A stretch of DNA of 64,000 nt from Caulobacter sp. FWC2 (lineage in GTDB: Bacteria; Pseudomonadota; Alphaproteobacteria; Caulobacterales; Caulobacteraceae): assembly GCF_002742625.1 (NCBI RefSeq), contig NZ_PEBF01000001.1:4836001-4900000 (forward strand), given 5' to 3'. The notes below the pieces were generated by a model. It did no database searches, was not told where the DNA came from, and saw nothing but the letters and a program-made list of their open reading frames with translations. Position numbers and translations under genes: made by a program. Below, one piece after another: positions 45,941-63,804 of the stretch. Every line of letters starts with the position of its first letter. Within the stretch, counting starts at the first letter, position 1.

Positions 45941-45951
45941 GGAGAATGCCG

Positions 45952-46473
45952 ATGAAGACCCCCCTGATTGCTCTTCTCGCGCTCGTGGCGACCTCTTCGC
46001 TGGCGACGGGAGCGGCGGCCCACGTGGTCGCCGCGCCCGACGCGGCCAAGGCCGGCTCCTACGCCGCCATCGCCTTCCGCGTCGGCCATGCCTGCGCGGC
46101 CGGCGACACCACCCTGAAGGTCCGCATCGAGATCCCCGACGGCGTGGCCTCGGCCCGGCCGCAGGTCAAGCCGGGCTGGACCTACACGCTCGAGCGCGGC
46201 CCCGACCCGAAGGCCGCGCCCACGGCGATCACCTTCGAGGGCCGCCTGCCCAACGAGGCCTTCGACGACTTCGCGGTGCTGATGAAGCTCCCCGTTTCCG
46301 GCGACCGCCTGGTCTTTCCGGTCATCCAGACCTGCGAGAAGGGCGAGAGCCAGTGGACGGAAGTGGCCGATCCCGCCCGACCCGACGAGAAGCTCAGCCG
46401 GCCCGCCCCGGTCGTCACCCTGATCCCTGCCCCCAATCCGACTGGCGCGGCGCCCGCCGCCCACCAACACTGA
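45952..46473 (+). CDS. YcnI/DUF1775-type copper-binding envelope protein
   Basis: 173 residues. After a signal peptide (LIALLALVATSSLATGAAA) the mature protein begins with His-Val-Val, consistent with the N-terminal copper brace His of YcnI proteins. The core carries FRVGHACAAGDTTLKV, VKPGWTY and the Trp near ESQWTEV that contribute to the copper site. The C-terminal region is Pro/Ala-rich and ends HQH. ATG at 45952 is favoured over the ATG at 45946 by the spacing of the GGAG site. It is flanked by the TonB receptor and PCu(A)C genes, a known copper-acquisition pairing. Confidence 0.85.
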   Translation: MKTPLIALLALVATSSLATGAAAHVVAAPDAAKAGSYAAIAFRVGHACAAGDTTLKVRIEIPDGVASARPQVKPGWTYTLERGPDPKAAPTAITFEGRLPNEAFDDFAVLMKLPVSGDRLVFPVIQTCEKGESQWTEVADPARPDEKLSRPAPVVTLIPAPNPTGAAPAAHQH

Positions 46474-46486
46474 CAAGGAGCGCCTC

Positions 46487-46981
46487 ATGTCGCGTCCGTT
46501 CGCTATCGCCCTGGCCGCCATCCTGGCCGCCGCCGTCGCCGCCCCGCTGGCGCAAGCCGGCGACTACAAGCTCGGCGCCCTGACCATCCGCCAGCCCTGG
46601 AGCCGCCCGGCCCAGGCCGGCATGAACGGGGTGGGCTTCATGACCATCGCCAACGCCGGCAAGACCCCGGTGACCCTGCAGCGCGTCGAGACCACGGCCG
46701 CCGGCTCGGTCGAGATCCACCAGTCGGCCATGGTCAATGGCGTCATGACCATGCGCGAGCAGGACAAGGGCGTGGTGATCCCAGCCGGGGGCCAGGTCGC
46801 CTTCGCCCCCGGCGGCTACCACCTGATGATCCTGTCGCTGAAGGCGGCCCAGGGCGTGGGGCAAAAAGTTCCGGTGACCCTGGTCTTCGACAACGGCCGC
46901 AAGGCTCAGGTCGACCTGACCGTGCAACTGACCCCGCCGGCCGGCGGGCAGGCGTCTACCGCGCCCGAGCACCGTCACTGA
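46487..46981 (+). CDS. Periplasmic copper chaperone PCu(A)C
   Basis: 164 residues. Signal peptide to about residue 25 (ending LAQAG), then the PCu(A)C domain. The Met/His copper motif is visible: MNGVGFMTIAN, EIHQSAMVNGVMTM with its His and Met residues, and GGYHLMIL with HxM. It delivers Cu(I) to cytochrome oxidase CuA or CuB centres in several bacteria. The C-terminus adds a short EHRH tail that may bind copper as well. It is the last gene of the cassette, 13 bp after YcnI. Confidence 0.92.
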   Translation: MSRPFAIALAAILAAAVAAPLAQAGDYKLGALTIRQPWSRPAQAGMNGVGFMTIANAGKTPVTLQRVETTAAGSVEIHQSAMVNGVMTMREQDKGVVIPAGGQVAFAPGGYHLMILSLKAAQGVGQKVPVTLVFDNGRKAQVDLTVQLTPPAGGQASTAPEHRH

Positions 46982-47051
46982 AGAGTCAAAAAATGGGCTA
47001 CATGAACTTTTTTTAAGGGAGCAAATTTTCCGCGTCCGTGCAGATTGCCGC

Positions 47052-47162
47052 CAGAGCCTGTCCGGTTCCGATGAAAATCGGAAACGGATAAACAGGCTCT
47101 GCCTCAAACTCTTGGAGCGTGGCGGCCGCCGAAACCGCTCACACTTTCGGCTGCCACGCTCC
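47052..47162. repeat. Two tandem hairpins upstream of the M13 peptidase gene
   Basis: CAGAGCCTGT/ACAGGCTCTG (47052-47061, 47092-47101) encloses CCGGTTCCGAT/ATCGGAAACGG. Next, GGAGCGTGGCGGCCGCCGAAA (47114-47134) is mirrored with small differences by TTTCGGCTGCCACGCTCC (47145-47162), ending 28 bp before the M13 start. They separate the copper operon from the peptidase gene. Confidence 0.75.
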
Positions 47163-47189
47163 AGCTCACACCAACGGATGCGACTTTCC

Positions 47190-49310
47190 ATGAAACGAGT
47201 TTGGTTCGGCGCTGCAGCGATCGCGGCGTTGTCTCTGTCGGCCTTCGGGGCGCAAGCCCACGAAGAGCACCCCTGCGTCAACGACGCCTGCACGGTGCAA
47301 TCGCTGCTGCCGGCTCTGGCCGAGGGCGTCGCCTCGGGCGACGTCACCTCGCTGGAGTCGCCGCGCTACGGGACCTGGGGTTTCGACCTCTCGGGCATGG
47401 ACACCTCGGTGAAGCCGGGCGACGACTTCTACAAGTTCGCCAACGGCGCCTGGGACGCCAAGACGGTGATCCCGTCGGACCGCACCCGCTACGGTAACTT
47501 CGACAAGCTGGCGGAACTGTCGGAAGCCCGCACCAAGGCCCTGATCGAAGCCGCCGCCGCCGACAAGGCCGCCACCGGCGACAAGGCCAAGATCGGCGCC
47601 GCCTACCGCGCGTTCATGGACGAGGCGACGATCGAGAAGCTCGACGCCGCCCCGATCAAGCCGTGGCTGGCCGGCGTGCAGAAGGTCAAGACCAAGGACG
47701 AGTTCACCGCCCTGATGGGCAAGAGCTCGACCACGCCCTATTCGGCCCTGATCGGCCTGGGCATCTCGACCGACGCAAAGAGCCCGAACGCCTACGCCGT
47801 CTACGCCTCGACCGGCGGCCTGTCCCTGCCCGACCGCGACTACTATCTGGACGCCAAGTTCGCCGACAAGAAGACGGCCTACCTGGCCTATGTCGAGAAG
47901 ATGCTGACCCTGGGCGGCTGGGAAAAGCCGGCCGAGAACGCCAAGGCCGTGGTCGACTTCGAGACCAAGCTGGCCGAGGCCTCGTGGAGCCGCGTCGAGC
48001 GCCGCAACCGCGACAAGACCTACAACCCGGCCACCCTGGCCGAGCTGCAGGCCCAGACGCCCGGCTACGACTGGAACCGCTACCTGGTCGGCACCGAACT
48101 GCCGAAGGTCGACCGCATCATCGTGACGACCAACACCTCGTTCCCGAAATACGCCAAGATCTATGCCGACACCCCGATCGAGACCCTCAAGGCCTGGCAG
48201 GCGTTCAAGGTGATCGACGGCGCGGCCCCGATGCTGTCCAAGCGCTTCGTCGACGCCAGCTTCGAGTTCCGCAACAAGACCCTGTCGGGTCAGCCCGAGC
48301 AGCGCCCGCGCTGGAAGCGCGGCGTCGCCCAGGTCAACGGCCTGCTGGGCGAAGCGGTCGGCAAGGAATATGTCGCCGCCTACTTCCCGCCGGCCTCTAA
48401 GGCCAAGATGGTCGCCCTGGTCGGCGACATCCGCACCGTCCTGAAGACGCGCATCGACGCGTCGGACTGGATGGGCGCCGAGACCAAAGCCAAGGCCCAG
48501 GACAAGCTGGCCAAGTTCACCGTCAAGATCGGCTATCCCGACAAGTGGCGTGACTATTCCAAGCTGGAGATCAAGGAAGGCGACGCCTACGGCAATTCCA
48601 TGCGCGAAGCCGCCTGGGACTACCGCCACGACGTCGAGCGCCTGAACCAGCCGGTCGACAAGTCCGAGTGGGGCATGACCCCGCAGACGGTCAACGCTTA
48701 CTACAACTCGGTCAACAACGAGATCGTGTTCCCGGCCGCCATCCTGCAGGCGCCGTTCTTCCATCCGGACGCGGATCCGGCCGTCAACTATGGCGGCATC
48801 GGCGGCGTGATCGGCCACGAGATCGGCCACGGCTTCGACGACCAGGGCCGCAAGTCCGACGGCGACGGCGTGCTGCGCGACTGGTGGACGGCGGAAGACG
48901 CCGCCAAGTTCGACGTGCAGAAGAACAAGCTGGGCGCCCAGTACTCGGCGTTCGAGCCCTTCCCGGGCATGCACGTCAACGGCGACCTGACCATGGGCGA
49001 GAACATCGGCGACCTGTCGGGCCTGGGCTTCGGCCTCGACGCCTACCACGTGTCGCTGCAGGGCAAGCCCTCGCCGGTGCTGGACGGCTTCACCGGCGAC
49101 CAGCGCGTCTATCTGGGCTGGGCCCAGGTGTGGCGTCAGAAGTCGCGCGACGACGCGCTGAAGCAACAGATCGCCAGCGACCCGCACTCGCCCGCCGTCT
49201 ACCGCGTCAACGGCACGGTCCGGAACCAGCCGGGCTGGTACTCGGCCTTCGACGTCAAGCCGGGCGACAAGCTGTATGTCGCCCCCGCTGACCGCGTGAA
49301 GATCTGGTAG
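47190..49310 (+). CDS. M13-family zinc metallopeptidase (neprilysin/PepO-like)
   Basis: 706 residues. A signal peptide covers residues 1-21 (MKRVWFGAAAIAALSLSAFG, then AQA), followed by a histidine-containing start HEEHPC. The M13 N-terminal domain begins at DTSVKPGDDFYKFANGAWD. The zinc site is HEIGH (His543, Glu544, His547) with the third ligand in GENIGDLSG (Glu604), and the substrate-binding NAYYNSVNNEIVFPAAILQ block lies upstream. The C-terminus VAPADRVKIW ends as in PepO, which normally finishes with CxVW. It likely degrades oligopeptides in the periplasm. A terminator follows. Confidence 0.94.
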   Translation: MKRVWFGAAAIAALSLSAFGAQAHEEHPCVNDACTVQSLLPALAEGVASGDVTSLESPRYGTWGFDLSGMDTSVKPGDDFYKFANGAWDAKTVIPSDRTRYGNFDKLAELSEARTKALIEAAAADKAATGDKAKIGAAYRAFMDEATIEKLDAAPIKPWLAGVQKVKTKDEFTALMGKSSTTPYSALIGLGISTDAKSPNAYAVYASTGGLSLPDRDYYLDAKFADKKTAYLAYVEKMLTLGGWEKPAENAKAVVDFETKLAEASWSRVERRNRDKTYNPATLAELQAQTPGYDWNRYLVGTELPKVDRIIVTTNTSFPKYAKIYADTPIETLKAWQAFKVIDGAAPMLSKRFVDASFEFRNKTLSGQPEQRPRWKRGVAQVNGLLGEAVGKEYVAAYFPPASKAKMVALVGDIRTVLKTRIDASDWMGAETKAKAQDKLAKFTVKIGYPDKWRDYSKLEIKEGDAYGNSMREAAWDYRHDVERLNQPVDKSEWGMTPQTVNAYYNSVNNEIVFPAAILQAPFFHPDADPAVNYGGIGGVIGHEIGHGFDDQGRKSDGDGVLRDWWTAEDAAKFDVQKNKLGAQYSAFEPFPGMHVNGDLTMGENIGDLSGLGFGLDAYHVSLQGKPSPVLDGFTGDQRVYLGWAQVWRQKSRDDALKQQIASDPHSPAVYRVNGTVRNQPGWYSAFDVKPGDKLYVAPADRVKIW

Positions 49311-49334
49311 GTCTTGTGACCTATCGCTAACGGG

Positions 49335-49363
49335 AAGGGCCGGTGGAAACACCGGCCCTTTTT
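49335..49363 (+). terminator. Intrinsic terminator of the M13 peptidase gene
   Basis: An 11-bp perfect stem (AAGGGCCGGTG, loop GAAA, CACCGGCCCTT) with a stable GNRA-type loop is followed by a T-run. It lies 25 bp after the stop codon. Confidence 0.9.
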
Positions 49364-49472
49364 CGTGGCGGCGGCGTCAGTCGGTCGCACCTCGGAAACG
49401 TCGCGGGCAACCCTCGATTAACCATCGTGGCGCTTACTCGAACCTTCCGGCAACCTTGAGCGATCCGCTTTC

Positions 49473-50615
49473 GTGCATTCGTCCGCTCTCCTCTCAACCG
49501 TTGAGGCTTCGGCCCCGTCACCGCAGGACGCGCCCGTCCCGGTGGCGCGGCCATTCATGCCGTCGGCCGAGGCGATCCTGCCCTATCTGCAGCGGATAGA
49601 CGCCAAGCGCTGGTACTCCAATTTCGGCCCCATGCTGATCGAGCTGGAGGCCCGCCTGGCGGCGAGGTTCGCGCGGCCCACCCTGGCCTGCACCGCCGCC
49701 AACGGCACCCAGGCCCTGACCCTGGCCCTGCTGGCGCTGAACGCCAAGCCGGGCGGCCTGTGCGTCATGCCGGCCTGGACCTTCGTCGCCACCGCCCACG
49801 CCGCGATCCAGGCGGGGCTGGTCCCGTGGTTCGTCGACGTCGATCCCGTCACAGGCGTGCTGGACGCCGACCATGTCCGCGCGCGCCTGGCCCACGCGCC
49901 CGGCCCCGTCTCGGCGGTGATCCCGGTGGCCGCCTTCGGCCAGCCGCTGGATCCCGCGCCGTGGGCCAGGTTGCATGAGGACACCGGCCTGCCGGTGGTC
50001 ATCGACGCGGCCGCCTCGTTCGACAGCGTCAGCGCCGCCCCGGTCCCGACCATGGTCAGCCTGCACGCCACCAAGTCGCTGGGCGTCGGCGAAGGCGGCT
50101 TCATCGCCTCGGAGGATCCGGCCTTCATCGACCGCTTCCGGGCCCTGACCAGCTTCGGCTTCATGGGCGACCGCGAGGCCCGGTTCGCGGCCAACAACGC
50201 CAAGCTCAGCGAATATACCTGCGCCATCGGCCTGACCGCCCTGGACCAGTGGCCGTCGACCCGCACGGCCTACATCATCACCGCCCAGCGCCTACGCGTG
50301 TCGCTGCTGCATACGCCCGCCGTCCGCTTCCAGCCCGGCTGGGGCCTGGACTGGACCTCCAGCACCTGCGTCGTCGCCCTGCCCGAGGGGGCGACCGGCG
50401 CCGTCGAGGCCAGCCTGAAGGCCCAAGGCGTCGACAGCCGCCGCTGGTGGGGCCTGGGCTGCCACCGCGCCCCGGCCTTCGCCCACTGTCCGGCCGATTT
50501 CCTGCCGGTCACCGAGCGCCTCGCCGCCTCGACCCTGGGCCTGCCCTATTTCGCCGACATGGACGTCGACCAGGTCAACCGCGTCGCCCTGGCGCTGGCC
50601 CAAGCCCTCGGCTGA
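49473..50615 (+). CDS. DegT/DnrJ/EryC1/StrS-family sugar aminotransferase
   Basis: 380 residues. PLP enzyme that aminates a nucleotide-linked keto-sugar. The PLP lysine is Lys201 in SLHATKSLGVGEGGF, the cofactor Asp is in VVIDAAASFDS, and AANGTQALTLALLAL binds the phosphate. A GTG start at 49473 is used, with only a weak ribosome site; about 25 residues precede the conserved fold. The gene stands 115 bp before a compact operon for acyl synthesis and transfer, and probably makes the amino group that is later acylated. No sugar dehydratase or epimerase is in the window, so the keto-sugar must come from elsewhere. Confidence 0.88.
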   Translation: MHSSALLSTVEASAPSPQDAPVPVARPFMPSAEAILPYLQRIDAKRWYSNFGPMLIELEARLAARFARPTLACTAANGTQALTLALLALNAKPGGLCVMPAWTFVATAHAAIQAGLVPWFVDVDPVTGVLDADHVRARLAHAPGPVSAVIPVAAFGQPLDPAPWARLHEDTGLPVVIDAAASFDSVSAAPVPTMVSLHATKSLGVGEGGFIASEDPAFIDRFRALTSFGFMGDREARFAANNAKLSEYTCAIGLTALDQWPSTRTAYIITAQRLRVSLLHTPAVRFQPGWGLDWTSSTCVVALPEGATGAVEASLKAQGVDSRRWWGLGCHRAPAFAHCPADFLPVTERLAASTLGLPYFADMDVDQVNRVALALAQALG

Positions 50616-50730
50616 GCCTCGAAACATCCTCGCTGCGACGCCGCGCCGCATCAGCGGGAGCTTATGGTTAACCGGTCTTTAGAACTTGAAACCCTAGTCT
50701 CAGCCGTCGGTTGAGGAGCGTCAGCGTCAG

Positions 50731-51741
50731 GTGGGCACCAGCGGAAAAATCGTCGCGATCGCCAGCCACCTGCCCGAGCAGGTGCTGAGCAACGACGACC
50801 TGGCCGCCCTTTATCCCAGCTGGCCGGCCGACAAGATCCTCGACAAGACCGGCGTCCAGACCCGCCGCATCGCCGCCCCCGGCGAGACCGCGGTCGACCT
50901 GGCGGAGGCCGCCGCCAAGGCGCTGTTCGCCCAGGGCCGGGTATCGCCGAGCGACATCGACTACCTGCTGTTCTGCACCCAGGCGCCGGATCACATCCTG
51001 CCGACCTCGGCCTGCATCCTGCAGCAGCGGCTGGGCCTGCGCACCGACATCGGCGCGCTGGACTTCAACCTGGGCTGCTCGGGCTTCGTCTACGGCCTGT
51101 CCATGGCCCAGGCCCTGATCGCCAGCGGCCAGGCGCGGCGCGTGCTGCTGCTGACCGCCGACACCTATTCCAAGCTGATCCACCCGATGGATCGCGGCGT
51201 GCGCAGCCTGTTCGGCGACGGCGCGGCCGCCACCCTGATCGAGGCCGTCGAGACCGATGCGCCGGCCCTGGGCCCCTTCGTGTTCGGCACGGACGGATCG
51301 GGGGCCGAGAACCTGATCGTCCCGGCCGGAGGCTTCCGCCAGCCGCGCACGGCGGAGACGGCCGTGGTCACCGAGGACGCCTCGGGCAACCTGCGCTCGG
51401 CCGACCATCTCTACATGAACGGCGCGGCGATCATGACCTTCACCCTGGGCGCGGTCCCGGCGGCGATCGACAAGCTGCTGGCCCGCGCCGGCGCTGCGCT
51501 GGACGACTACGACGCGGTGGTGCTGCACCAGGCCAGCGCCTTCATCCTGGACCGCCTGCGCCGCAAGCTGGCCGTGCCCGAGGACCGCTTCGTGGTGGCC
51601 CTGCGCGACTGGGGCAACACCGTCTCGTCCACCATTCCCATGGCGCTGGAGCCGCTGGTCAGGGACGGGCGTGCGCGCCGCGTCCTGCTGGTCGGCTTCG
51701 GCGTCGGCTATTCCTGGGCCGCCGCCCAGGCCCTTCTCTAG
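50731..51741 (+). CDS. 3-oxoacyl-ACP synthase III (FabH-like), first copy
   Basis: 336 residues. The KAS III triad is intact: Cys116 in FNLGCSGFVYG, His266 in VLHQASAF and Asn296 in WGNTVSSTIP, so it should catalyse decarboxylative condensation of malonyl-ACP with a short acyl-CoA or related primer. A GTG start follows a GAGGAG site. ACP begins 10 bp downstream. It is only moderately similar to the second copy in the same operon, so the two probably differ in primer or step. Confidence 0.9.
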   Translation: MGTSGKIVAIASHLPEQVLSNDDLAALYPSWPADKILDKTGVQTRRIAAPGETAVDLAEAAAKALFAQGRVSPSDIDYLLFCTQAPDHILPTSACILQQRLGLRTDIGALDFNLGCSGFVYGLSMAQALIASGQARRVLLLTADTYSKLIHPMDRGVRSLFGDGAAATLIEAVETDAPALGPFVFGTDGSGAENLIVPAGGFRQPRTAETAVVTEDASGNLRSADHLYMNGAAIMTFTLGAVPAAIDKLLARAGAALDDYDAVVLHQASAFILDRLRRKLAVPEDRFVVALRDWGNTVSSTIPMALEPLVRDGRARRVLLVGFGVGYSWAAAQALL

Positions 51742-51751
51742 GAGCACAGCA

Positions 51752-51976
51752 ATGCAGACCCTGTACGCCGGCCTGGCCGAGATCTTCGAGATCGACACCG
51801 CCGAAGTGACCGCCGACACCGTCCTGGCCAACCACAACTGGGACTCGCTGGCCATCGTCTCGACCATCGCCCTGGTCGACGAGATCTGCGGCGAGCTGCT
51901 GGACGGCGCGGCCCTGGCCGAGTGCGTCACGGTCAGCGACATCGCCGCCCTGATCCCGCAGGCCAAGGCGGCCTGA
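51752..51976 (+). CDS. Acyl carrier protein
   Basis: 74 residues. The phosphopantetheine attachment serine is Ser32 in NWDSLAIVS; helix II carries the acidic residues expected to contact partner enzymes (LVDEICGELLDG). It is too divergent from the housekeeping ACP (normally DSLDTVE) to be the fatty-acid one, and it sits between two KAS III genes, so it is a dedicated carrier. Intergenic gaps of 10 and 2 bp show tight co-expression. The GGAGCACAGC ribosome region precedes the ATG. Confidence 0.92.
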   Translation: MQTLYAGLAEIFEIDTAEVTADTVLANHNWDSLAIVSTIALVDEICGELLDGAALAECVTVSDIAALIPQAKAA

Positions 51977-51978
51977 TC

Positions 51979-53067
51979 ATGACGACCACGGCGCCTGCCT
52001 CGCCTGCCAGCGACTCTGAAAAGGGGGGCCGCCGTCGGGGCGGCTACGCCCTGTCCGGCGTCGCCCTGCGCGGCGTGGTCTGCGCCGTGCCCGGTCCGCC
52101 GATCCCCAATTCGGTGATCGCCCAGACCCTGGGCGACCAGGCCGTCGCCGACGTCGTCAAGATGGTCGGGGTCGAGACCCGTCACTGGGCCGCGCCGACC
52201 CAAACCAGCGCCGACCTCTGCGCCGCCGCCGCCGAGCGGCTGCTGGAACGGCTGGGCTGGGCGCCCGACAGCATCGACGCGCTGATCTTCGTCACCCAAA
52301 CACCCGATCATCCGCTGCCCGCCAGCGCCTGCCTGCTGCACGGCCGCCTGAAGCTGGCCAACGACTGCCAGGCCTTCGACGTCAATCTGGGCTGCTCGGG
52401 CTATGTCTACGGCCTGTGGCTGGCGTCCAGCCTGATCCAGAGCGGCTGCCAGCGCGTGCTGCTGCTGGCCGGCGAGACCAGCAGCCGCCTGGTCGATCCC
52501 AGCGATCGCGGCACGGCCGTGCTGTTCGGCGACGCCGGCTCGGCCTCGGCGCTGGAGCACGACCCCGCCGCGTCGGCCATGAACTTCCGCATGGGCACGG
52601 ACGGCGCCGGCGCGGGCGCGCTGATGGTGCCGCAGGGCGGCTTCCGCCCCGTCGATCCCGACCGCGCCTTCACCCTGGACCCGACCCGCCTGCACATGGA
52701 CGGGGGCGAGGTGTTCACCTTCACCCTGCGCGAAGTGCCCAAGCTGGTGGCCGCCACCCTGGCCGACGCGGGCATCACCGGTGACAAGGTCGACGCCTAC
52801 CTGCTGCACCAGGCCAACCGCTTCATGCTGCGCCATATCGGCAAGAAGATCGGCGCCACGGACACCGACCGTCTGCCGATCAATATCGACCGCTATGGCA
52901 ACACCAGTTCAGCGACCATACCCCTGCTGCTGGCCGACGACATGGCCCGGCGCCTGACCACGGGCTCGGCCCAGCTGATGCTGGTCGGCTTCGGCGTCGG
53001 CCTGTCGTGGGGCGCGGTGCTGGCCGAGTTCGGCCCCCTGGCCTGCGCCGAAGTGATCGCCGCATGA
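51979..53067 (+). CDS. 3-oxoacyl-ACP synthase III (FabH-like), second copy
   Basis: 362 residues, with a ~20-residue Ser/Gly/Arg-rich N-terminal extension. The triad is intact: Cys139 in VNLGCSGYVYG, His277 in LLHQAN and Asn308 in YGNTSSATIP. It begins two bases after the ACP stop and its own stop overlaps the SDR start by ATGA. Two complete KAS III enzymes in one operon suggest either two successive condensations or two different primers. A heterodimer is another possibility, but both keep the catalytic residues. Confidence 0.9.
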   Translation: MTTTAPASPASDSEKGGRRRGGYALSGVALRGVVCAVPGPPIPNSVIAQTLGDQAVADVVKMVGVETRHWAAPTQTSADLCAAAAERLLERLGWAPDSIDALIFVTQTPDHPLPASACLLHGRLKLANDCQAFDVNLGCSGYVYGLWLASSLIQSGCQRVLLLAGETSSRLVDPSDRGTAVLFGDAGSASALEHDPAASAMNFRMGTDGAGAGALMVPQGGFRPVDPDRAFTLDPTRLHMDGGEVFTFTLREVPKLVAATLADAGITGDKVDAYLLHQANRFMLRHIGKKIGATDTDRLPINIDRYGNTSSATIPLLLADDMARRLTTGSAQLMLVGFGVGLSWGAVLAEFGPLACAEVIAA

Positions 53068-53825
53068 CCTTTTCGCCAGACGCCCTAAAGGACCGGACCA
53101 TCCTGGTCACCGGCGCCTCCTCAGGGCTGGGCCGCGCCACCGCAGCCCTGATCGCCCAATGCGGCGGCCGGGTGATCGCCACCGGCCGCGACGAGGCCCG
53201 CCTGACCGCCACGATCGAGAGCCTGGCCGGCGAGGGCCACACCGCCTTCGCCGCCGAGCTGAACGACGCCGACGCAGTCGCTGATCGGATCAGCGCCATC
53301 GCCACCGAGGCCGGCGGCCTGGACGGCGTCTTCCATTCGGCGGGCAGCGAGCTGATCCTGCCGGCCCGCCTGACCAAGGCCAAGCAGATCGACGGCGTGT
53401 TCGGGGCGGCGGTGCATGGCGCCCTGGGCCTGGGCCGCGCGGCCGGCAAGGCCAATGTGATGAAGGCCGGCGCGTCGATCGTGCTGATGTCCTCGGCCTC
53501 GGCCCAGCGCGGTCGCGCCGGCATGATGGCCTATTCCGCCGCCAAGGCCGCGATCGAGGGCCTGACCCGGTCGCTGGCCTGCGAGCTGGCCCCCAAGGAC
53601 ATCCGCGTCAACGCCATCGCCGCCGGCGGGGTCGAGACCGAGATGCACGCCCGCCTGGCGCGCGGCCTCTCCGACGCCGGCATGAGCGCCTATGAGGCCC
53701 AGCACCCGCTGGGCTTTGGCCAACCGGACGATGTGGCTTCGGCCGCCGTGTTCCTGCTGTCGCCCGCCGCCCGCTGGGTGACCGGCGCGGTGTGGGCCGT
53801 CGACGGCGGCTACCTGGCCAGCTGA
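53064..53825 (+). CDS. SDR-family oxidoreductase, probable 3-oxoacyl-ACP reductase
   Basis: 253 residues. Nucleotide motif TGASSGLG (residues 16-23), the Arg-bearing ATGRDEARL that suggests NADPH, catalytic Ser in LMSSASAQRG and the YxxxK pair in AYSAAKAA. The C-terminal WVTGAVWAVDGGYLAS is typical of FabG-like proteins. In this operon it would reduce the 3-ketoacyl-ACP made by the KAS III enzymes to the 3-hydroxyacyl form. A role on a keto-sugar cannot be excluded from sequence. Confidence 0.85.
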   Translation: MTFSPDALKDRTILVTGASSGLGRATAALIAQCGGRVIATGRDEARLTATIESLAGEGHTAFAAELNDADAVADRISAIATEAGGLDGVFHSAGSELILPARLTKAKQIDGVFGAAVHGALGLGRAAGKANVMKAGASIVLMSSASAQRGRAGMMAYSAAKAAIEGLTRSLACELAPKDIRVNAIAAGGVETEMHARLARGLSDAGMSAYEAQHPLGFGQPDDVASAAVFLLSPAARWVTGAVWAVDGGYLAS

Positions 53826-53838
53826 GGGATTTGGCGCG

Positions 53839-54459
53839 ATGACGGACTATGTGCTGGTCGGCGGCGGGGCCTTCGCCCGCGAGATTCACGACTGGTTCGC
53901 TCCGGGCCTCTCCGGCGGCGACCGCTTCGTCGGCTATCTGGACGACGGCGACCAGCCGATGGCCGCCTTCGGCCGCGACCTGCCACAGCTGGGCGACACC
54001 ACGGCCTACGCCCTCGCACCCAACCAGCGCCTGGTGATGGCCGTCGGCGATCCGGCCGGCAAGGTCGCCCTGGCCGGACGGCTGGGCGGCCCGCAAGCCT
54101 TCGCCACCCTGATCCACCCCCGCGCCTGGGTCTCGGCCTCGGCCGGGCTGGGCCACGGCGCCGTGGTCGGTCCGTTCACGGACGTCTCGGCCGACAGCAA
54201 GGCCGGCGACCTGCTGACCCTCAACGCCTATTCCAGCCTGGGCCACGACGTCGCCGTCGGCGACTTCGTCACCCTCAGCGGCTATGTCGACCTGACCGGC
54301 GGGGTGACGGTCGGCGACCGCAGCTTCTTCGGCTCGGGCGCGCGGGTGCTCCCAAGGCTGACCATCGGCGCCGGCTGCATGGTCGGGGCCGGCGCGGTCG
54401 TGGTGCGCGGCTGCGAGGACGGGGTGACGCTTTACGCGGCGCCGGCGAGGCGGCTTTGA
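53839..54459 (+). CDS. NeuD/PglD-family sugar N-acyltransferase
   Basis: 206 residues. An N-terminal Rossmann-like domain (YVLVGGGAFAREIHDW) is followed by a left-handed beta-helix of hexapeptide repeats (GAVVGPFTDVSADSKAGD and onward). The catalytic His of PglD corresponds to His136 in SLGHDV. Such enzymes transfer an acetyl or acyl group to the amino group of a UDP- or dTDP-amino sugar. Given the ACP upstream, the donor here may be an acyl-ACP rather than acetyl-CoA. Its stop overlaps the Rieske start. Confidence 0.88.
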   Translation: MTDYVLVGGGAFAREIHDWFAPGLSGGDRFVGYLDDGDQPMAAFGRDLPQLGDTTAYALAPNQRLVMAVGDPAGKVALAGRLGGPQAFATLIHPRAWVSASAGLGHGAVVGPFTDVSADSKAGDLLTLNAYSSLGHDVAVGDFVTLSGYVDLTGGVTVGDRSFFGSGARVLPRLTIGAGCMVGAGAVVVRGCEDGVTLYAAPARRL

Positions 54460-55481
54460 GTCCCCTCGACCAGACCCTGCTGACCACCTGGTGGCACCTG
54501 GTCGCCCACCGGAGCGAGCTGGCCGAGTCGGGCGCCTTCCTGCGGCTGGACTGGGCCCTGGGCGACCTCGTTCTGCACAATGACGAAGGCCAGATCATCG
54601 CCTTCGACAATGTCTGCCCGCATCGCGGCGCGCGGTTCTTCGTCGAGGACCATGGCGTCGGCCGGGCCGTCTGCCCCTATCACGGCTGGAGCTATCGCGG
54701 CGGCCAGGTCCGCGTGCCCCTGGCCAAGACCTTCCCGCCCGGCGCCCTGGACAAGGTCGGCCTGCGCCGCTTCCAGACCGCCTGGTGCGGCGACTTCCTC
54801 TTTGTCGGGATCGAGCCCGCGCAGGACCTGCCAACCCAGCTGGCCGGCGCCTTCGCCCCGCTGGCCGAGGTCTCGACCCGGATCGCCGGCCGCCGCGACT
54901 TCAACGCCTTCGAATTCCAGTCCGACTGGCGCGTGGCGGTCGAGAACGCCCTGGAGAGCGACCACGTCAATCCGGTCCATCCGCGCACCCTGGCGCCGCT
55001 GGGCCTGCAGGATGACGCGATCGTCTTCGACGGCCCCAACACCACCTATGCCGCCCACATCACCGACAGCCGCACCCTGCGCGGGCTGAAGACGATGGGC
55101 CGGTTCTTCGAGGCCGAGGGCGCCTATCGGGGCTACTGGACGATCTACGTCTTCCCATTCGCCATGGTCTCCTCGACCTTCGGCTATTCCTATTCGCTGC
55201 AGACCTTCCTGCCATCGGCCACGCCGCACCGCGCCCACTTCTGCAGCCGGCAGCTGGCCGGCAAGGTGAAGCCCGGCTACGAGGCCGCCGTCGCGGCGTT
55301 CCTCGACTCCAGCGCCCGGGTCAACCGCCAGATCTTCGACGAGGATCATGCGATCTGCGCCCGCGTCAGCCCGCACTACGACCTGACCTCCGCCGACCGG
55401 GTGTTCTCGCCCGGTGAAGCCCGCGTCGCCCGCCTGCACGCGATCCTGACGGCGATGACCAACCAAGAGGACCTGCCCTGA
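54456..55481 (+). CDS. Rieske [2Fe-2S] non-heme iron oxygenase, alpha-subunit type
   Basis: 341 residues. Rieske ligands are visible: CPHRG (Cys54, His56) and CPYHGW (Cys73, His76). The mononuclear iron site matches NALESDHVNPVH, with two histidines and an upstream acidic residue that can bridge to the Rieske centre. Such enzymes hydroxylate, demethylate or desaturate a substrate using electrons from a reductase encoded elsewhere. The start is a TTG forming a TTGA overlap with the acyltransferase stop, and its own stop overlaps the glycosyltransferase start (TGATG). The likely target is the acyl chain or the sugar made by this operon. Confidence 0.88.
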   Translation: MSPLDQTLLTTWWHLVAHRSELAESGAFLRLDWALGDLVLHNDEGQIIAFDNVCPHRGARFFVEDHGVGRAVCPYHGWSYRGGQVRVPLAKTFPPGALDKVGLRRFQTAWCGDFLFVGIEPAQDLPTQLAGAFAPLAEVSTRIAGRRDFNAFEFQSDWRVAVENALESDHVNPVHPRTLAPLGLQDDAIVFDGPNTTYAAHITDSRTLRGLKTMGRFFEAEGAYRGYWTIYVFPFAMVSSTFGYSYSLQTFLPSATPHRAHFCSRQLAGKVKPGYEAAVAAFLDSSARVNRQIFDEDHAICARVSPHYDLTSADRVFSPGEARVARLHAILTAMTNQEDLP

Positions 55482-56929
55482 TGGCCCTGTTCGATTTCCT
55501 TCAGGAAGGCGCTCAAGAGCGGTACCTGCCGTCGATCAAGATCATCGCCGATCGCTGGGACATCATGCTGGGCGAGAACGCTCTGGATGGCGTCGACGAC
55601 TACACCTTCGTCGAGGAGGTGATCAGCCTGCTGGAAAGCGGCCGCTACACGCCCGACATCATCCTGCAGGTGATCTCCGACCTGGGCTCGATCGCCTGGT
55701 GGCGCGGCCCGCACCTGGGCGACGCCCACGCCGGACGCGTCGCGGCCCTGGCGCGCCGCCTGCACCTGAGCAGCGCCGACGCCCTGACCCTGCCGCCGCG
55801 CGACATTCCCCTGGGCGCCGTGCGAGAGGCGCATGTGGTCTTCGCCGGCGACCTGATGGGCCCCTTCCACTCGCCCTCGCGCGGCGCGATCGACTATGTC
55901 GCCGCCCTGGCCATGGACCCGACCATCACCCGGATCGACCTGCACCACGGCGGCGAGACCCTCTCGGCCAACATGCAGGCCTATATTGACGAGCGCCTGG
56001 GCCACATCCCCCACGAGCGCGGCGTGCGGCTGATCTCCACGGTCGAGAACCCCGACTATCTGGTCGACGCAATCCGCAAGGGACCGAGCACCTATCACTT
56101 CTGGTGCGAGCCGATCATGGCCCCGCAGATCACCATCGCCAGCCGCCTGGGCCCGACGGTGATGTTCACCTGCGGCGACGAGCCCCCGCCGCAGTACGCC
56201 GACGTCTTCTGGTACTTTCACGAGCCCCAGCACATGGCGCCGATCTGGAAACGCCGGGGCGCGCCGGCCAGCTATATCCGCAACTACGTCCAGAGCCTGT
56301 CGGGCCCGTTCTATGACGAGGGTCCGCCCGCCCCGCGCGCCCGTTCCGAGGTCGGCTTGCCGCAGGACGCCTTCGTCATCGCCACGGTCGGCAACCGCCT
56401 GGCGGTCGACCTGGACGAGACCTTCGTCACCGGGATCGAGAAGATCCTGCGCGACCGGCCCAACGTCATCTGGCTGGTGGTGGGCGGCCTGCCCGACAAC
56501 CTGCTGAACGCCTGCGAGACGATCCTCGGCGACCAGTTCCACTACATCTACCAGGACCAGGAACTGGCCCGGCTGATGACCACGGTCGACGTGTTCGCCA
56601 ACCCGTTCCGCCAGGGCGGCGGCAACAGCGCCATGATCGCCCTGACGGCCGGCGCGGTGCTGCTGACCACCAATGACGGCGACGTCGCCTCCATGGCCCC
56701 GCACGACCATCGCGCCAAGGATCCCGAGGACTATTTCGCCCGCCTGGCGACGCTGATCGACACGCCCGGGGCCCTGGACGACTGGCGGGGCCCGCAGCAG
56801 GAACGCCGCCGGCTGATGAACGACCAGACCCACTTCCTCAGCGCGCTGAAGGCCATGGTCGACCTGGCCCACCAGCGCTTCGAAGCCCGCCAGGGCCGCA
56901 CCCTGACCTCGGTGGTCAACGAGGGGTGA
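55481..56929 (+). CDS. GT-B glycosyltransferase, group 1-like
   Basis: 482 residues. The C-terminal nucleotide-sugar domain shows VIATVGNRLAVDLDETFVTGIEKIL in pieces, VIWLVVGGLPDN, and the donor-binding VFANPFRQGGGNSAMIALTAGAVLLTTNDGD, with Glu/Asn positions typical of GT-B folds. The N-terminal ~110 residues (ALFDFLQEGAQERYLPSIKI) form a helical region I do not recognise. HHGGETLSANM begins the acceptor domain. No membrane segment is present. As last gene of the operon it probably transfers the finished acylated amino sugar to a glycan or protein. Confidence 0.85.
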   Translation: MALFDFLQEGAQERYLPSIKIIADRWDIMLGENALDGVDDYTFVEEVISLLESGRYTPDIILQVISDLGSIAWWRGPHLGDAHAGRVAALARRLHLSSADALTLPPRDIPLGAVREAHVVFAGDLMGPFHSPSRGAIDYVAALAMDPTITRIDLHHGGETLSANMQAYIDERLGHIPHERGVRLISTVENPDYLVDAIRKGPSTYHFWCEPIMAPQITIASRLGPTVMFTCGDEPPPQYADVFWYFHEPQHMAPIWKRRGAPASYIRNYVQSLSGPFYDEGPPAPRARSEVGLPQDAFVIATVGNRLAVDLDETFVTGIEKILRDRPNVIWLVVGGLPDNLLNACETILGDQFHYIYQDQELARLMTTVDVFANPFRQGGGNSAMIALTAGAVLLTTNDGDVASMAPHDHRAKDPEDYFARLATLIDTPGALDDWRGPQQERRRLMNDQTHFLSALKAMVDLAHQRFEARQGRTLTSVVNEG

Positions 56930-56976
56930 GGGGCGATCGCCTTCCGCTGAGCCGTCGGACCGCTTAGCGTCGGCGC

Positions 56977-58137
56977 ATGGCGGATTGGGGACTCCTTTTC
57001 GGATGGCGGACGGCGCTGCTCGGCGTCGCGATCCTGCAATGCGTGCTGCTGGCCGGCGCCCTGGCGCGGAGCGGGCCCAACCGGGCGGCCAACCGCTTCC
57101 TCGCGGTCGCCCTGGTGGTCGTCGCCGGGATGCTGACGCCCTATGCGATCGGTTTCGCCGGCGCCTATGACCGTTTCCGCTGGCTGACCTTCGCCCCGTT
57201 CGCCATTCCCCTGGCGTTCGGGCCGCTGCTGTACGGCTACGCCCACGCGCTGGCGGACGGGACGGCGCCGCGTCGGATGCGGCTGCACCTGCTGCCCGCC
57301 CTCGCCCAGTTCGCCTATCTGGCCTTGTGTTTCCTGATCCCCGGGGACGCCAAGTGGGCGTGGTACACGGGCGGGCACCGCGCCATCGTCTCGCCCGTGC
57401 TGGACGTGATGGGCCTGGTGAGCCTGGCGGCCTATGCCTACGCCATCGGCGGGCTCTTGCGGCGTCAGCGCAAGCGGCTGGCCGACCACCGCAGCGACGA
57501 CGAGCGCTTCTCGGCCCACTGGCTGGGTCGGGTCCTGACGGTGATCCTGGCGGGCCTGGGCCTGAAGGCCGGCTTCTGGCTGTGGTCGCTGATCGCGGGC
57601 GGGATCGACTTCTTCCAGGAGACCGGCCTGTACCTGGCCCTGGCCGGGGTCGGCGTCTATCTGGGCGTAGCCGGCTGGCGACAGGCCGCGCTTCCCGTGC
57701 CCTTGGCCGCCTCGGACCCGATCAGCGCAGAACAGGAGCCCTCGCGCTCCCCCGACTGGCCGTCCATCGCCGCCGAGATCGCCGACCGCACCCGCGACGC
57801 CGGCTGGTGGCGCGAGCCGGACCTGTCGCTGGCGCGCCTGTCCCGGCTTCTGGGCACCAACAACGGCCGCCTGTCACGGGCCATCAATCTGGGCCTGGGC
57901 GTGAACTTCTCCAACTTCGTCAACGGGCTGCGGGCCGAGGGCGTGGCGCGGGCGCTGGAGGCCGGTTCCGACGACGACCTGCTGAGCCTGGCGCTGGACA
58001 TGGGTTTCGCCTCCAAGGCCAGCTTCAACCGCGCCTTCAAGGCCCGGTTCGGCGTCTCGCCCTCGCGGTACCGGCGGCAGGTCTCAGATCCTGCCTTTCT
58101 GCCGGCCGACGCGGAAATGAGGCGCGCCGCGCCGTGA
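56977..58137 (+). CDS. AraC-family regulator with seven-helix membrane domain
   Basis: 386 residues. Residues 1-235 hold about seven membrane segments (GVAILQCVLLAGALA, FLAVALVVVAGMLTPYAIGF, FAPFAIPLAFGPLLYGYAHAL, LLPALAQFAYLALCFLI and more). The C-terminal ~110 residues are an AraC HTH with LARLSRLLGTNNGRLSRAINL and LSLALDMGFASKASFNRAFKARFGVSP. The design matches the protein at 19.7-20.8 kb, although the HTH sequences differ. A secreted S41-type protease gene follows 40 bp downstream. Confidence 0.87.
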   Translation: MADWGLLFGWRTALLGVAILQCVLLAGALARSGPNRAANRFLAVALVVVAGMLTPYAIGFAGAYDRFRWLTFAPFAIPLAFGPLLYGYAHALADGTAPRRMRLHLLPALAQFAYLALCFLIPGDAKWAWYTGGHRAIVSPVLDVMGLVSLAAYAYAIGGLLRRQRKRLADHRSDDERFSAHWLGRVLTVILAGLGLKAGFWLWSLIAGGIDFFQETGLYLALAGVGVYLGVAGWRQAALPVPLAASDPISAEQEPSRSPDWPSIAAEIADRTRDAGWWREPDLSLARLSRLLGTNNGRLSRAINLGLGVNFSNFVNGLRAEGVARALEAGSDDDLLSLALDMGFASKASFNRAFKARFGVSPSRYRRQVSDPAFLPADAEMRRAAP

Positions 58138-58177
58138 GCCGAGGCATGGGCTGGGCTCCGTTCGTGAGGATCCCTCC

Positions 58178-59644
58178 ATGCCCTTGAATCGTCGTCGCCT
58201 GTTGCAGCTTTCGGGCGGCCTGGCCCTTGGCGCCGCCCTGCCCGCCTGGGCCGACACCGTCACCGACGACTGGAGCGGCGACGTCGCGATCCTGCGCCAG
58301 GCCTGGGAGACGATGCATCCCGGCGTCTATCGCTACAGCACCCCGCAGGAGATCTCGGCCCGGCTGGACGGCCTGGCTCGCGCCTGGGCCGCGCCGGGGA
58401 CGTTCCGCGACCGCTTCCTGGCCCTGACGCGCGTCACCGCCTCGCTGAAGTGCGGCCACACCTATCCCAGCCCCTACAACAGCAGCGACGCGACCGTGGC
58501 GCGGATCTATCCGGACCGGTCGCTGGTCCCGTTCCTGTTCCGCTGGATCGATGGCCGGATGGTGGTGATCCGCGACGACAGCGGCGCGGCCCTGTTCCCG
58601 CGCGGCGCGGTGATCACCGCCATCGACGGCGTCGCGACCCAGGACCTGCTGGAGCGCCTGATCCCCCTGGCCCGCGCCGACGGCTCCAACCGGGCCAAGC
58701 GCGTCAGCCTGATGGAGGCGCGCGGCGAGGATCGCTTCGAGACCTTCGACATCCACCTGCCGCTGGTGCTGCCGCTGAAGGACGCCGCCGCCTTCACCCT
58801 GGCCGACGGCCGCGTCGTTCGCGCGCCCCTGCTGACCCTCGCCGATCGCCGCGCCGGCTTCTCCCCCACGGTCGAGGTCGCCAAAAACGCCAATCCCTGG
58901 ACCCTGAGCAAGGGCGATGACGGCGTGCATCGCCTGACCATGCCCGGCTGGGCGCTCTATGAGTCCGACTTCGACTGGCGGACCTGGCTGGGCGGGGTGA
59001 TGGACGATCTGACCGGCGATGGCGCGCGCGGCCTGGTCGTCGACCTGCGCGGCAACGAGGGCGGCATCGACTGCGGCAATGTCATCATCAGCCGTCTGAT
59101 CGATCGCGACCTGCCGCTGTCGCGCGACCAGCGCTGGACCCGCTATCGCACCGCGCCCGAGGCCTTGCGGCCGCACCTGAAGACCTGGGATCGCAGCTTC
59201 CTGGACTGGGGCGAGGCGGCCGTCGCCTCCCCGGAGCGGCCCGGCTACTATCGACTGACGCGCGCCGGCGACAACGGCAAGTCCGGCCTGATCCAGCCGG
59301 CCGGGCGTCGGTTCAAGGGGCGGGTGGCGGTGCTGTGCGACGCCTCCAACAGCTCGGCCACCTTCGGCTTCGACCAGACCTGCAAGGACAACGGCCTGGC
59401 GACGCTGGTCGGCCAGACCACCGGCGGCAACCGGCGCGGCATCAATGGCGGGGCCTTCTTCTTCCTGCAGCTGCCGGCGTCGAAGCTGGAAGTCGACCTC
59501 CCCTTGATCGCCAGCTTTCCCGCGACGCCCCAGCCGGACGCGGCCATCGAGCCCGACATCGCCGTGGCCACGACGGCCAAGGATATCGCCACGGGTCGGG
59601 ACCCACAGATGCTGGCGGCGACGGCGCTTATCCTCGGACGATGA
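58178..59644 (+). CDS. S41-family (tail-specific-like) exported peptidase
   Basis: 488 residues. A Tat-type signal peptide (NRRRLLQLSGGLALGAALPAWA) directs folded export. The S41 core follows with GLVVDLRGNEGG near residue 283 and the nucleophile Ser in DASNSSATFGFDQ. The helical N-terminal segment (WSGDVAILRQAWETMHPGVYRYST) is shared with several S41 members. A PDZ-like stretch (GAVITAIDGVATQDLLERL) lies near residue 148. The catalytic Lys could not be placed by eye, so activity is likely but not proven. It is probably under the preceding AraC protein. Confidence 0.85.
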   Translation: MPLNRRRLLQLSGGLALGAALPAWADTVTDDWSGDVAILRQAWETMHPGVYRYSTPQEISARLDGLARAWAAPGTFRDRFLALTRVTASLKCGHTYPSPYNSSDATVARIYPDRSLVPFLFRWIDGRMVVIRDDSGAALFPRGAVITAIDGVATQDLLERLIPLARADGSNRAKRVSLMEARGEDRFETFDIHLPLVLPLKDAAAFTLADGRVVRAPLLTLADRRAGFSPTVEVAKNANPWTLSKGDDGVHRLTMPGWALYESDFDWRTWLGGVMDDLTGDGARGLVVDLRGNEGGIDCGNVIISRLIDRDLPLSRDQRWTRYRTAPEALRPHLKTWDRSFLDWGEAAVASPERPGYYRLTRAGDNGKSGLIQPAGRRFKGRVAVLCDASNSSATFGFDQTCKDNGLATLVGQTTGGNRRGINGGAFFFLQLPASKLEVDLPLIASFPATPQPDAAIEPDIAVATTAKDIATGRDPQMLAATALILGR

Positions 59645-60494: not shown

Positions 60495-60533
60495 CCCTAG
60501 ATATGAGCCGACCCAGCCCCAGGAGCCGCCTTC

Positions 60534-60929
60534 ATGCCCCCCACCCTCGCCAAGGCCCTGGACGCCTCCGCCGTCGGCCTGTCGGCCCTGTGCCTGGTCC
60601 ACTGCCTGGCCTTGCCGGCCTTGGCCCTGCTGCTGCCGGTGCTGGGCCTGTGGGCGCAGGCCGAGTGGGTGCACGTGGTCTTCGTGTTGATCGCCGCGCC
60701 GGTGGCCGTGCTGTCGTTCGTCGACCCGTCGACCCGCCGGCCGCGCTCCCGGCCCCTGGCGACGTTAGCGGTCCTGGGTCTTGGCCTGATGATCGCCGGC
60801 GCCCTGGAGTTTCCGTCCGCCGCCGACGAGCGCGTCCTGACCGTGCTGGGCGGCCTGCTGCTGGCCGGCGCCCACCTGACCAACTGGCGCCGCCGCCATC
60901 ACGACGCCCACTGCGCGGCGTGTGAATGA
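60534..60929 (+). CDS. MerC-domain small membrane protein
   Basis: 131 residues with four membrane segments. The family motif is the cysteine pair in LCLVHCLALPALALLLP (residues 20-36), and a second group, HHDAHCAACE, ends the protein. MerC proteins move mercuric ions, but chromosomal relatives without a mer operon often lie behind zinc- or iron-responsive sites, and no merR, merA or merT gene is present here. With the Zur-like box upstream, a role in zinc or other metal uptake is more likely than mercury resistance. Confidence 0.75.
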   Translation: MPPTLAKALDASAVGLSALCLVHCLALPALALLLPVLGLWAQAEWVHVVFVLIAAPVAVLSFVDPSTRRPRSRPLATLAVLGLGLMIAGALEFPSAADERVLTVLGGLLLAGAHLTNWRRRHHDAHCAACE

Positions 60930-60982
60930 GGCTGCGAAGCCGGCGGTGAGCGGCGTCCGGATCTCCCGGTCAGTCAGCTTAA

Positions 60983-63474: not shown

Positions 63475-63505
63475 AAGTCTTTTTGACTCTTCCGTCAAAA
63501 GACTT
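63475..63505. repeat. TTTTGAC palindrome, copy 1
   Basis: AAGTCTTTTTGAC and GTCAAAAGACTT face each other across TCTTCC: a near-perfect dyad of 12-13 bp arms. It lies about 100 bp after the GST stop. Confidence 0.65.
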
Positions 63506-63783
63506 CACCAGGGCCCAGATACACCAAACCCGCCGCGGGGGATAATCGCGACGGGCTGGCTATTTCTCGATCATTCGATCTAGGCGGGCGTTTCCTCCCC
63601 GAAACGCCGAAGAACGGGAGCTCTCTGTTGGGCTCGTTTCGTCCTTGCATCCTGTAGAAACGTCAAATTCATGACGGTGTCAACGCGGCAAATCCCTTTT
63701 TCGCAAAGGTTCCGCCGAATTTTTGACGCGAGTGGCGTTGTTTGGACCCGAAAGTCGATTTTACCTCGTGAATCGATGTTTTA

Positions 63784-63803: not shown

Positions 63804-63804
63804 C

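What the first reader, a model, noticed from the sequence alone, without database searches (positions are those of the whole stretch)
49473..56929. Candidate biosynthetic system for an acyl-modified amino sugar
Seen directly: an intact PLP sugar aminotransferase, then seven genes with gaps of 2-13 bp or overlapping start/stop codons: KAS III, ACP, KAS III, SDR, NeuD/PglD acyltransferase, Rieske oxygenase, GT-B glycosyltransferase. Known: islands combining an aminotransferase, acyltransferase, KAS III, ketoacyl reductase and glycosyltransferase make 3-hydroxybutyryl-amino sugars, for example the viosamine derivative on Pseudomonas syringae flagellin (recalled, not searched). Inference: this operon makes a beta-hydroxyacyl chain on its own ACP, attaches it to an amino sugar, oxidises it, and transfers it to a surface glycan or protein. 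The Rieske gene and the doubled KAS III would set it apart from the known type.
Basis: partly seen in the sequence, partly recalled or inferred. Interest (0 to 1): 0.85.

Follow-up and report, generated by a model that had tools for sequence, protein, structure and literature searches.

The report
Acylated amino-sugar operon with Rieske oxygenase
A compact eight-gene set in a Caulobacter relative looks built to make a sugar carrying a short, extra-oxidised fatty chain, and its six-gene core recurs in the same order in unrelated bacteria, in some of them beside flagellum genes.

Summary
Eight intact ORFs lie in the stated order; the seven after the aminotransferase are 2-13 bp apart or overlap. 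The core KAS III-1, ACP, KAS III-2, SDR, NeuD/VioB acyltransferase, Rieske has exactly this order in 25 of 38 related loci, from Caulobacter to Burkholderiales and an acidobacterial assembly, with conserved catalytic residues. The general reading (an N-acylated amino sugar) is well supported. The doubled KAS III is not new: Flavobacterium psychrophilum wfpC-G has two KAS, an ACP, a reductase and a PglD acyltransferase, in an O-polysaccharide with a 3,5-dihydroxyhexanoyl amide (PMC6519341). What I found in no description is the Rieske oxygenase, which recurs beside such cassettes also when the search did not use it (6 of 14 loci; 4 of 4 with ACP+KAS+SDR+acyltransferase). Best explanation: two KAS III make a 3,5-dihydroxyhexanoyl chain, the acyltransferase puts it on a 4-amino-4,6-dideoxyhexose, the Rieske enzyme adds one oxygen, and a glycosyltransferase of a Caulobacterales family transfers it. 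Predicted residue: C12H21NO7, 291.13 Da. The acceptor in this strain is unknown. No chemistry was measured.

The parts
49473..50615 (+). DegT-family PLP sugar 4-aminotransferase (AT)
   Evidence: PF01041 186 bits; best NCBIfam TIGR04427 DesI 166 bits, below its cut-off 650; best PDB hit 2po3 '4-dehydrase'; same AT family near the same GT family in 10 of 13 further Caulobacteraceae loci
50731..51741 (+). KAS III-1 (KS1)
   Evidence: PF08545/PF08541; Cys/His/Asn kept in 32 of 32 aligned rows; own group, support 97/93; PDB 3gwa matches its profile at 541 bits
51752..51976 (+). Acyl carrier protein, Ser in WDSLA
   Evidence: PF00550 26.1 bits; a DS motif at this place in 35 of 36 loci with an ACP hit, L053 being the exception
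51979..53067 (+). KAS III-2 (KS2), a different lineage from KS1
   Evidence: Cys/His/Asn kept in 38 of 38 aligned rows; own group, support 87/90; PDB 4efi matches its profile at 536 bits
53064..53825 (+). SDR ketoacyl reductase
   Evidence: PF13561 171 bits; Ser/Tyr/Lys kept in 39 of 39 aligned rows
53839..54459 (+). NeuD/PglD/VioB-type N-acyltransferase
   Evidence: TIGR03570 153.9 bits; PDB hits perosamine N-acetyltransferase 4ea7 and VioB 7txp; presumed catalytic His 136 kept in 37 of 37 rows, His 93 in 36 of 37
54456..55481 (+). Rieske non-haem iron oxygenase alpha subunit
   Evidence: PF00355, PF00848; 2 Cys + 2 His cluster ligands and 2 His + Asp of the iron site kept in 38 of 38 aligned rows; best solved chain carnitine monooxygenase 6y8j, 92 bits
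55481..56929 (+). Putative GT-B glycosyltransferase; named homologs are Caulobacter, Phenylobacterium and Brevundimonas
   Evidence: 75 homologs at E<=0.001 among the 8000 scored candidates, few with a named organism; Glyco_trans_1_4 below cut-off, matched at E<=1 by 23 of 46 members, best 2e-6; 15 of 249 genomes of the family, own included

Best explanation
The block makes and transfers a 4-amino-4,6-dideoxyhexose whose 4-amino group carries a C6 polyhydroxyacyl chain. Steps: (1) AT aminates a 4-keto-6-deoxy nucleotide sugar (dTDP- or GDP-linked). (2) One KAS III joins acetyl-CoA and malonyl-ACP; the SDR reduces the product to 3-hydroxybutyryl-ACP. (3) The other KAS III extends it once more and the SDR reduces again, giving 3,5-dihydroxyhexanoyl-ACP. 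(4) The NeuD/VioB-like enzyme moves the chain to the 4-amino group. (5) The Rieske oxygenase, with electrons from housekeeping partners, hydroxylates the aliphatic chain before or after transfer. (6) The GT transfers the finished sugar to a surface acceptor. Shown here: genes, order, conservation, intact catalytic residues, two KAS lineages, AT and GT together without the cassette in other genomes. Inferred: every substrate and product. Predicted residue C12H21NO7, 291.13 Da; without step 5, 275.14 Da.
For: Same order in 25 of 38 loci; catalytic residues conserved; KS1 and KS2 separate lineages. Published logic: one KAS with a C4 acyl (P. syringae), two KAS + ACP + reductase + PglD with 3,5-dihydroxyhexanoyl (F. 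psychrophilum). Rieske gene near 6 of 14 loci found with KS2 alone. The Rieske gene is kept with the acyl genes in loci whose AT, dehydratase and GT types differ; its best-scoring known relatives are aliphatic-substrate enzymes, glycine betaine and carnitine monooxygenases (69.5 and 92 bits). Own genome has an RmlB match over its cut-off. A Burkholderia glumae record has flagellin-fliD-fliT-TPR protein-vioA-KAS III-ACP-(KS2-like stretch, no listed gene)-SDR-acetyltransferase-Rieske. A 291.1 Da flagellin glycan is reported for B. pseudomallei (review), equal to the predicted residue, though not specific.
Against: No chemistry is measured. KS1 is missing near the Rieske gene in 3 Acetobacter loci (and in 2 loci at contig edges) and the acyltransferase in L043 and L045, so two condensations are not universal. 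Distance correlations do not set the Rieske apart: 0.56-0.63 with acyl genes and 0.54 with AT, against 0.60-0.85 among acyl genes. Its scores to known families are far below their cut-offs (69.5 of 670) and ring dioxygenases follow closely (79.5 bits). 291.1 Da also fits other compositions (Neu5Ac residue 291.10, recalled), and the review reads its fragments as acetyl, formic acid and possibly acetamidino. Whether B. pseudomallei carries the cassette was not tested. The F. psychrophilum gene functions are its authors' predictions.
Confidence: 0.5

Rival explanations
1. The Rieske enzyme oxidises the sugar ring or its C6 methyl, not the acyl chain; the chain stays 3,5-dihydroxyhexanoyl (or 3-hydroxybutyryl).
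For: The Rieske protein also correlates with AT divergence (0.54); its gene follows the acyltransferase gene in the 25 loci of the main order, so the acyl-sugar is a possible substrate.
Against: It occurs both with a VioA-type context and with PglF-type dehydratase contexts, where the sugars should differ but the acyl genes are shared.
Confidence: 0.2
2. Only a C4 chain is made: one KAS III is a transacylase or has another role, and the product is a hydroxylated 3-hydroxybutyryl (for example dihydroxybutyryl) amide; residue about 247.1 Da (computed by hand).
For: KS1 is absent from three Acetobacter loci that keep ACP, KS2, SDR, acyltransferase and Rieske; the P. syringae system makes a C4 chain.
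Against: Both KAS have the Cys-His-Asn triad in every aligned row and are kept as distinct lineages; F. psychrophilum, with two KAS, has a C6 chain.
Confidence: 0.2
3. The cassette makes a small secreted or membrane metabolite (an acyl-amino-sugar natural product) rather than a surface glycan.
For: In this strain the block is not beside flagellins, and its flanks are an M13 peptidase, an AraC regulator and an S41 peptidase.
Against: No exporter or resistance gene among the eight; related loci lie near flagellin, FliD, GT41-type or sugar-phosphate transferases in 21 of 38 cases.
Confidence: 0.1

Closest known systems
Flavobacterium psychrophilum O-polysaccharide R1 genes wfpC-wfpG (PMC6519341, passages read)
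   Same: Two KAS (wfpC, wfpE), ACP (wfpD), ketoacyl reductase (wfpF), PglD-type acyltransferase (wfpG). If the letters follow the map, which I infer, the order is the window's KS1-ACP-KS2-SDR-NEU. Product is an amide on an aminated 6-deoxy sugar.
   Different: No oxygenase in the passages read (the locus also has ORFs of unknown function); sugar is UDP-Qui2NAc4N made by PglE/PglF; product is polymerised O-antigen.
Pseudomonas syringae viosamine island vioA-vioM-vioT-vioS-vioB-vioR-acp, with P. aeruginosa PAK homologs (PMC3927599, parts 1-2 of 5 read)
   Same: 4-aminotransferase, ACP, KAS III, reductase, VioB-type acyltransferase, glycosyltransferase; vioA, vioB, vioT and vioR mutants lose the acylated sugar.
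   Different: One KAS III, a methyltransferase, a 1173-aa transferase, no Rieske among its seven genes; C4 acyl chain. Most of the 14 PAK genes were not described in what I read.
Burkholderia glumae BGR1 record NZ_DQ996271.1 (annotation)
   Same: vioA-KAS III-ACP-(KS2-like stretch)-SDR-acetyltransferase-Rieske in the window's order.
   Different: Lies in a flagellar gene cluster with a TPR protein instead of the window's GT; the KS2-like stretch has no listed gene; I saw no published function.
Rieske-type N-acyl hydroxylases CMAH and NamH (recalled, from no call)
   Same: Precedent for a Rieske-type enzyme oxidising an N-acyl group of a nucleotide sugar.
   Different: They act on acetyl groups; no sequence comparison was made here.

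Membership tests
Viosamine-island type acylated amino-sugar systems | DegT-type 4-aminotransferase | tested here: met
Viosamine-island type acylated amino-sugar systems | ACP + KAS III + ketoacyl reductase + VioB-type acyltransferase in one cluster | tested here: met
Viosamine-island type acylated amino-sugar systems | Methyltransferase VioM and large transferase VioT | tested here: not met
   none among the eight genes; the GT has 482 aa and belongs to another family
Viosamine-island type acylated amino-sugar systems | Acylated sugar on flagellin | not testable with these tools
   needs mass spectrometry
F. psychrophilum R1 (wfpC-G) dihydroxyhexanoyl cassette | Two KAS, ACP, reductase, PglD-type acyltransferase | tested here: met
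   against passages of PMC6519341
F. psychrophilum R1 (wfpC-G) dihydroxyhexanoyl cassette | Sequence orthology of the five genes | not tested
   the wfp sequences were not fetched in any call
F. psychrophilum R1 (wfpC-G) dihydroxyhexanoyl cassette | 3,5-dihydroxyhexanoyl amide product | not testable with these tools
   needs chemistry
Rieske non-haem iron oxygenase alpha subunits | 2 Cys + 2 His cluster ligands; 2 His + Asp iron site | tested here: met
   38 of 38 aligned rows; that these positions are the ligands rests on family knowledge
Rieske non-haem iron oxygenase alpha subunits | Dedicated ferredoxin/reductase gene in the cluster | tested here: not met
   none among the eight genes; not required of every member
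GT41/FlmG-type flagellin glycosyltransferases | GT41 domain with TPR | tested here: not met
   window GT has no such match, although 14 of 38 related loci hold a GT41-type gene

The most novel reading that the evidence does not exclude
A widespread, undescribed class of acyl-amino-sugar pathways in which a Rieske oxygenase hydroxylates a short ketide chain on a nucleotide sugar or ACP, giving a trihydroxyhexanoyl-amino sugar (residue 291.13 Da). It plugs into different sugar and transferase modules for flagella, O-polysaccharide or other acceptors, and would account for the unassigned 291 Da flagellin glycan reported in Burkholderia.
Probability: 0.3. Interest if true: 0.75.

Novelty: new variant of a known kind. 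Interest (0 to 1): 0.6.

Why it matters
If right, short ketide chains on bacterial surface sugars are not only built and reduced but also oxidised by a Rieske enzyme, a step absent from the descriptions of related systems that I could read. It gives an exact mass (291.13, or 275.14 without the oxygenase) to look for in surface glycans of many genera, suggests a pathway for two solved KAS III structures whose molecule names give none (3gwa, 4efi), and separates an exchangeable acyl module from an aminotransferase-glycosyltransferase pair in Caulobacteraceae.

Tried and rejected
Doubled KAS III as the novelty: rejected, because F. psychrophilum has it. One KAS III as a decayed subunit: rejected, as both keep Cys-His-Asn in every aligned row; a first motif count gave false misses because its pattern was too strict. 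Flagellin as the certain target here: not accepted, since NeuB is present and the 7 flagellin hits lie far from the block. Window GT as a GT41/FlmG relative: not supported. Co-divergence as proof that the Rieske acts on the acyl chain: inconclusive. Rieske tree with generic Rieske proteins: long branches meet, so I claim no single origin.

Site comparison: in Caulobacter sp. 602-1 (G033) the block matches at 89.7% over window 49369-56934. The sequence before it also matches (45875-49367), but about 10.2 kb separate the two in 602-1; after it, 602-1 goes on with window 60520-60941, so the AraC-S41 pair is missing. The two breaks therefore mark other insertions or losses and do not show by themselves that the eight genes move as one. 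In G047, G050, G020 and G004 the M13 gene is present and no homology to the block was seen beside it in the stretch fetched (4 of 4; in G004 only 1.8 kb was seen on that side, and G004 has the core elsewhere). No clean empty site was shown. Promoter/terminator scan: none found.

Literature: 10 of 10 searches used, open-licence full texts only. One search (Rieske with ACP, glycosyltransferase, aminotransferase, KAS III; 4 of 5 terms) listed 10 papers and (Rieske + flagellin + glycosylation) 10; no title concerns such a cluster. I read passages of one (PMC12322963): unrelated.
Full report
What is there. Eight intact ORFs run on the + strand from 49473 to 56929. After the aminotransferase and a 115-bp gap, seven genes follow with gaps of 10, 2 and 13 bp and overlaps of 4, 4 and 1 bp. 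Pfam and NCBIfam give DegT aminotransferase, KAS III, ACP, KAS III, SDR, NeuD-type hexapeptide transferase and Rieske oxygenase. The last gene matches Glyco_trans_1_4 only below its cut-off; 23 of 46 members of its family show that match at E<=1, so glycosyltransferase is likely but not secure. The window lies at G000:C1:4836001-4900000; its nearest named relative is Caulobacter sp. 602-1.

Conservation. A close Rieske homolog (E below 1e-100) occurs in 3 of 61 genomes of the genus, own included, and in 0 of 40 from the rest of the order. A scan of named genome contigs with a Rieske alignment kept 80 loci. I carried the best 38 (L026-L063) forward and dropped the other 42, whose matches cover part of the query at 25-48% identity. 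In these 38, chosen because they hold the Rieske, KS2 is found in 37, SDR 37, ACP 36, acyltransferase 36, KS1 33, an AT homolog 27 and the window's GT 2. By stop-codon position, 25 of 38 have exactly KS1-ACP-KS2-SDR-NEU-Rieske on one strand (counts of 23 and 22 were disturbed by over-long ORF starts). Exceptions: three Acetobacter loci lack KS1; L043 and L045 lack the acyltransferase; L043 and L049 are cut by contig ends; three Pseudomonas loci, L027, L031, L048 and L059 have other orders. The 38 span Alphaproteobacteria, Burkholderiales and kin, Pseudomonas, one Acidobacteriota and one Campylobacterota assembly.

Are the enzymes intact? In alignments that include the window and leave out short pieces, the KAS triad is kept in 32 of 32 KS1 and 38 of 38 KS2 rows, Ser/Tyr/Lys in 39 of 39 SDR, His 136 in 37 of 37 acyltransferases (His 93 in 36 of 37), and cluster and iron ligands in 38 of 38 Rieske proteins. 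KS1 and KS2 form two groups (support 97/93 and 87/90), so they are not a recent duplication. Solved structures exist for both types: 3gwa matches the KS1 profile at 541 bits and 4efi the KS2 profile at 536 bits, and they match Paraburkholderia KS1 and KS2 at 591 and 712 bits. That they come from Burkholderia species is recalled.

Is the Rieske gene a real partner? I searched again with KS2 only. In 398 Pseudomonadota genomes 9 matched at 1e-80, own included; in 369 genomes of the class of G390 7 matched at 1e-90, one already seen. That leaves 14 loci. A Rieske gene lies in the fetched stretch in 6 of 14 (L139, L140, L143, L144, L146, L148). All 4 with ACP, KAS, SDR and acyltransferase have it (L140, L144, L146, L148); 2 of 4 with ACP, KAS and SDR but no acyltransferase hit; 0 of the other 6 (L141, L142, L149, L151, L152, L153), which lack a clear SDR beside ACP and KAS. 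Several are cut by contig ends (L141, L145, L148, L150), and these Rieske proteins score lower (101-225 bits) than the window's close kin, so some may be other Rieske subfamilies. In plasmid records the KS2 search found 22 records; in the three Azospirillum stretches I opened no gene is named Rieske. KAS genes of this lineage without a Rieske thus exist.

Context. Neighbour clustering over the 38 loci, with representatives identified by Pfam, gives a GT41/TPR glycosyltransferase cluster in 14 loci, flagellin in 4 and FliD in 3 (together 16 of 38), and a sugar-phosphate transferase in 5 of 38, the same five with a PglF-type dehydratase cluster. Seventeen loci have no such marker. In Burkholderia glumae BGR1 the annotated order is flagellin, fliD, fliT, TPR protein, vioA, KAS III, ACP, a KS2-like stretch without a listed gene, SDR, acetyltransferase, Rieske. 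In the window's strain the block is away from the flagellins; NeuB is present, and in C. crescentus flagellins carry pseudaminic acid put on by FlmG (PMC7591256, passages). So I leave the acceptor open for this strain.

Modularity. The window's GT family is found in 15 of 249 genomes of the family. In one locus from each of the 13 genomes other than the window's and 602-1, the window's AT family lies near the GT in 10, while the acyl cassette is present in 1, L185 (AT identities 46-61%). Two of these loci carry another hexapeptide transferase instead (L183 by Pfam; L186 similar by its N-terminus). AT and GT thus look like one unit and the six-gene acyl cassette like a second one that can be added. 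Comparison with strain 602-1 fits but does not prove transfer of the eight genes as one; see Tried and rejected.

How it most likely works. In P. syringae one KAS III, an ACP, a reductase and VioB go with a 3-hydroxybutyryl amide on viosamine; the demethylated sugar is lost as 231 Da in MS (PMC3927599), and the calculated residue is 231.11. In F. psychrophilum two KAS, ACP, reductase and a PglD homolog go with a 3,5-dihydroxyhexanoyl amide (PMC6519341). The window has the second set plus a Rieske enzyme. Two condensations, two reductions and one hydroxylation on a 4-amino-4,6-dideoxyhexose give C12H21NO7, 291.13 Da; the mass is the same for Qui4N and perosamine. The best-scoring known relatives of this Rieske group are glycine betaine and carnitine monooxygenases, with aliphatic substrates, though at low scores and with ring dioxygenases close behind. 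It occurs with both VioA-type and PglF-type sugar genes, which argues for the acyl chain as its substrate. Distance correlations do not decide this: Rieske with acyl genes 0.56-0.63, with AT 0.54; AT with acyl genes 0.25-0.51.

A possible external match. A review gives 291.1 Da for the B. pseudomallei flagellin glycan, 2 x 291 at one site, and says the O-antigen cluster is involved (PMC3958885, passages). This equals the prediction. It is weak evidence: other sugars share the nominal mass, the review reads the fragments differently, the primary paper was not held, and I did not test whether that species has the cassette.

Verdict. A real, conserved pathway; a new variant of a known kind. The Rieske step is the part that I found described nowhere, within what I could search and read (most of the PAK island and the F. 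psychrophilum ORFs of unknown function were not seen). Interest 0.6.

Noticed in passing
window 63514-63648, - strand: CrfA, a Caulobacter sRNA (Rfam 155 bits), beside a GST gene; the stretch 63481-64000 is also found near the block in strain 602-1 and downstream of the M13 gene in G050.
   Followed up: no
window 56977-59641: AraC-type regulator plus S41-peptidase-like gene: the pair is 83-84% identical in G047 and G020, with no acyl cassette in the 15-16 kb fetched there; absent after the block in strain 602-1.
   Followed up: partly
L174 3494-13703: About 10.2 kb between the M13 peptidase and the block in Caulobacter sp. 602-1, including a 2049-aa repeat-rich ORF.
   Followed up: no
   Followed up: no
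L176, L177 (Azospirillum plasmids): KS2-like KAS III, SDR, AMP-binding ligase and ACP between a pseudaminic acid synthase and a flagellin gene: acylated nonulosonic acid on flagellin?
   Followed up: no
L175 17430-18560 (B. glumae record): KS2-like stretch without a listed gene, matched in two pieces; possibly broken in this record.
   Followed up: no
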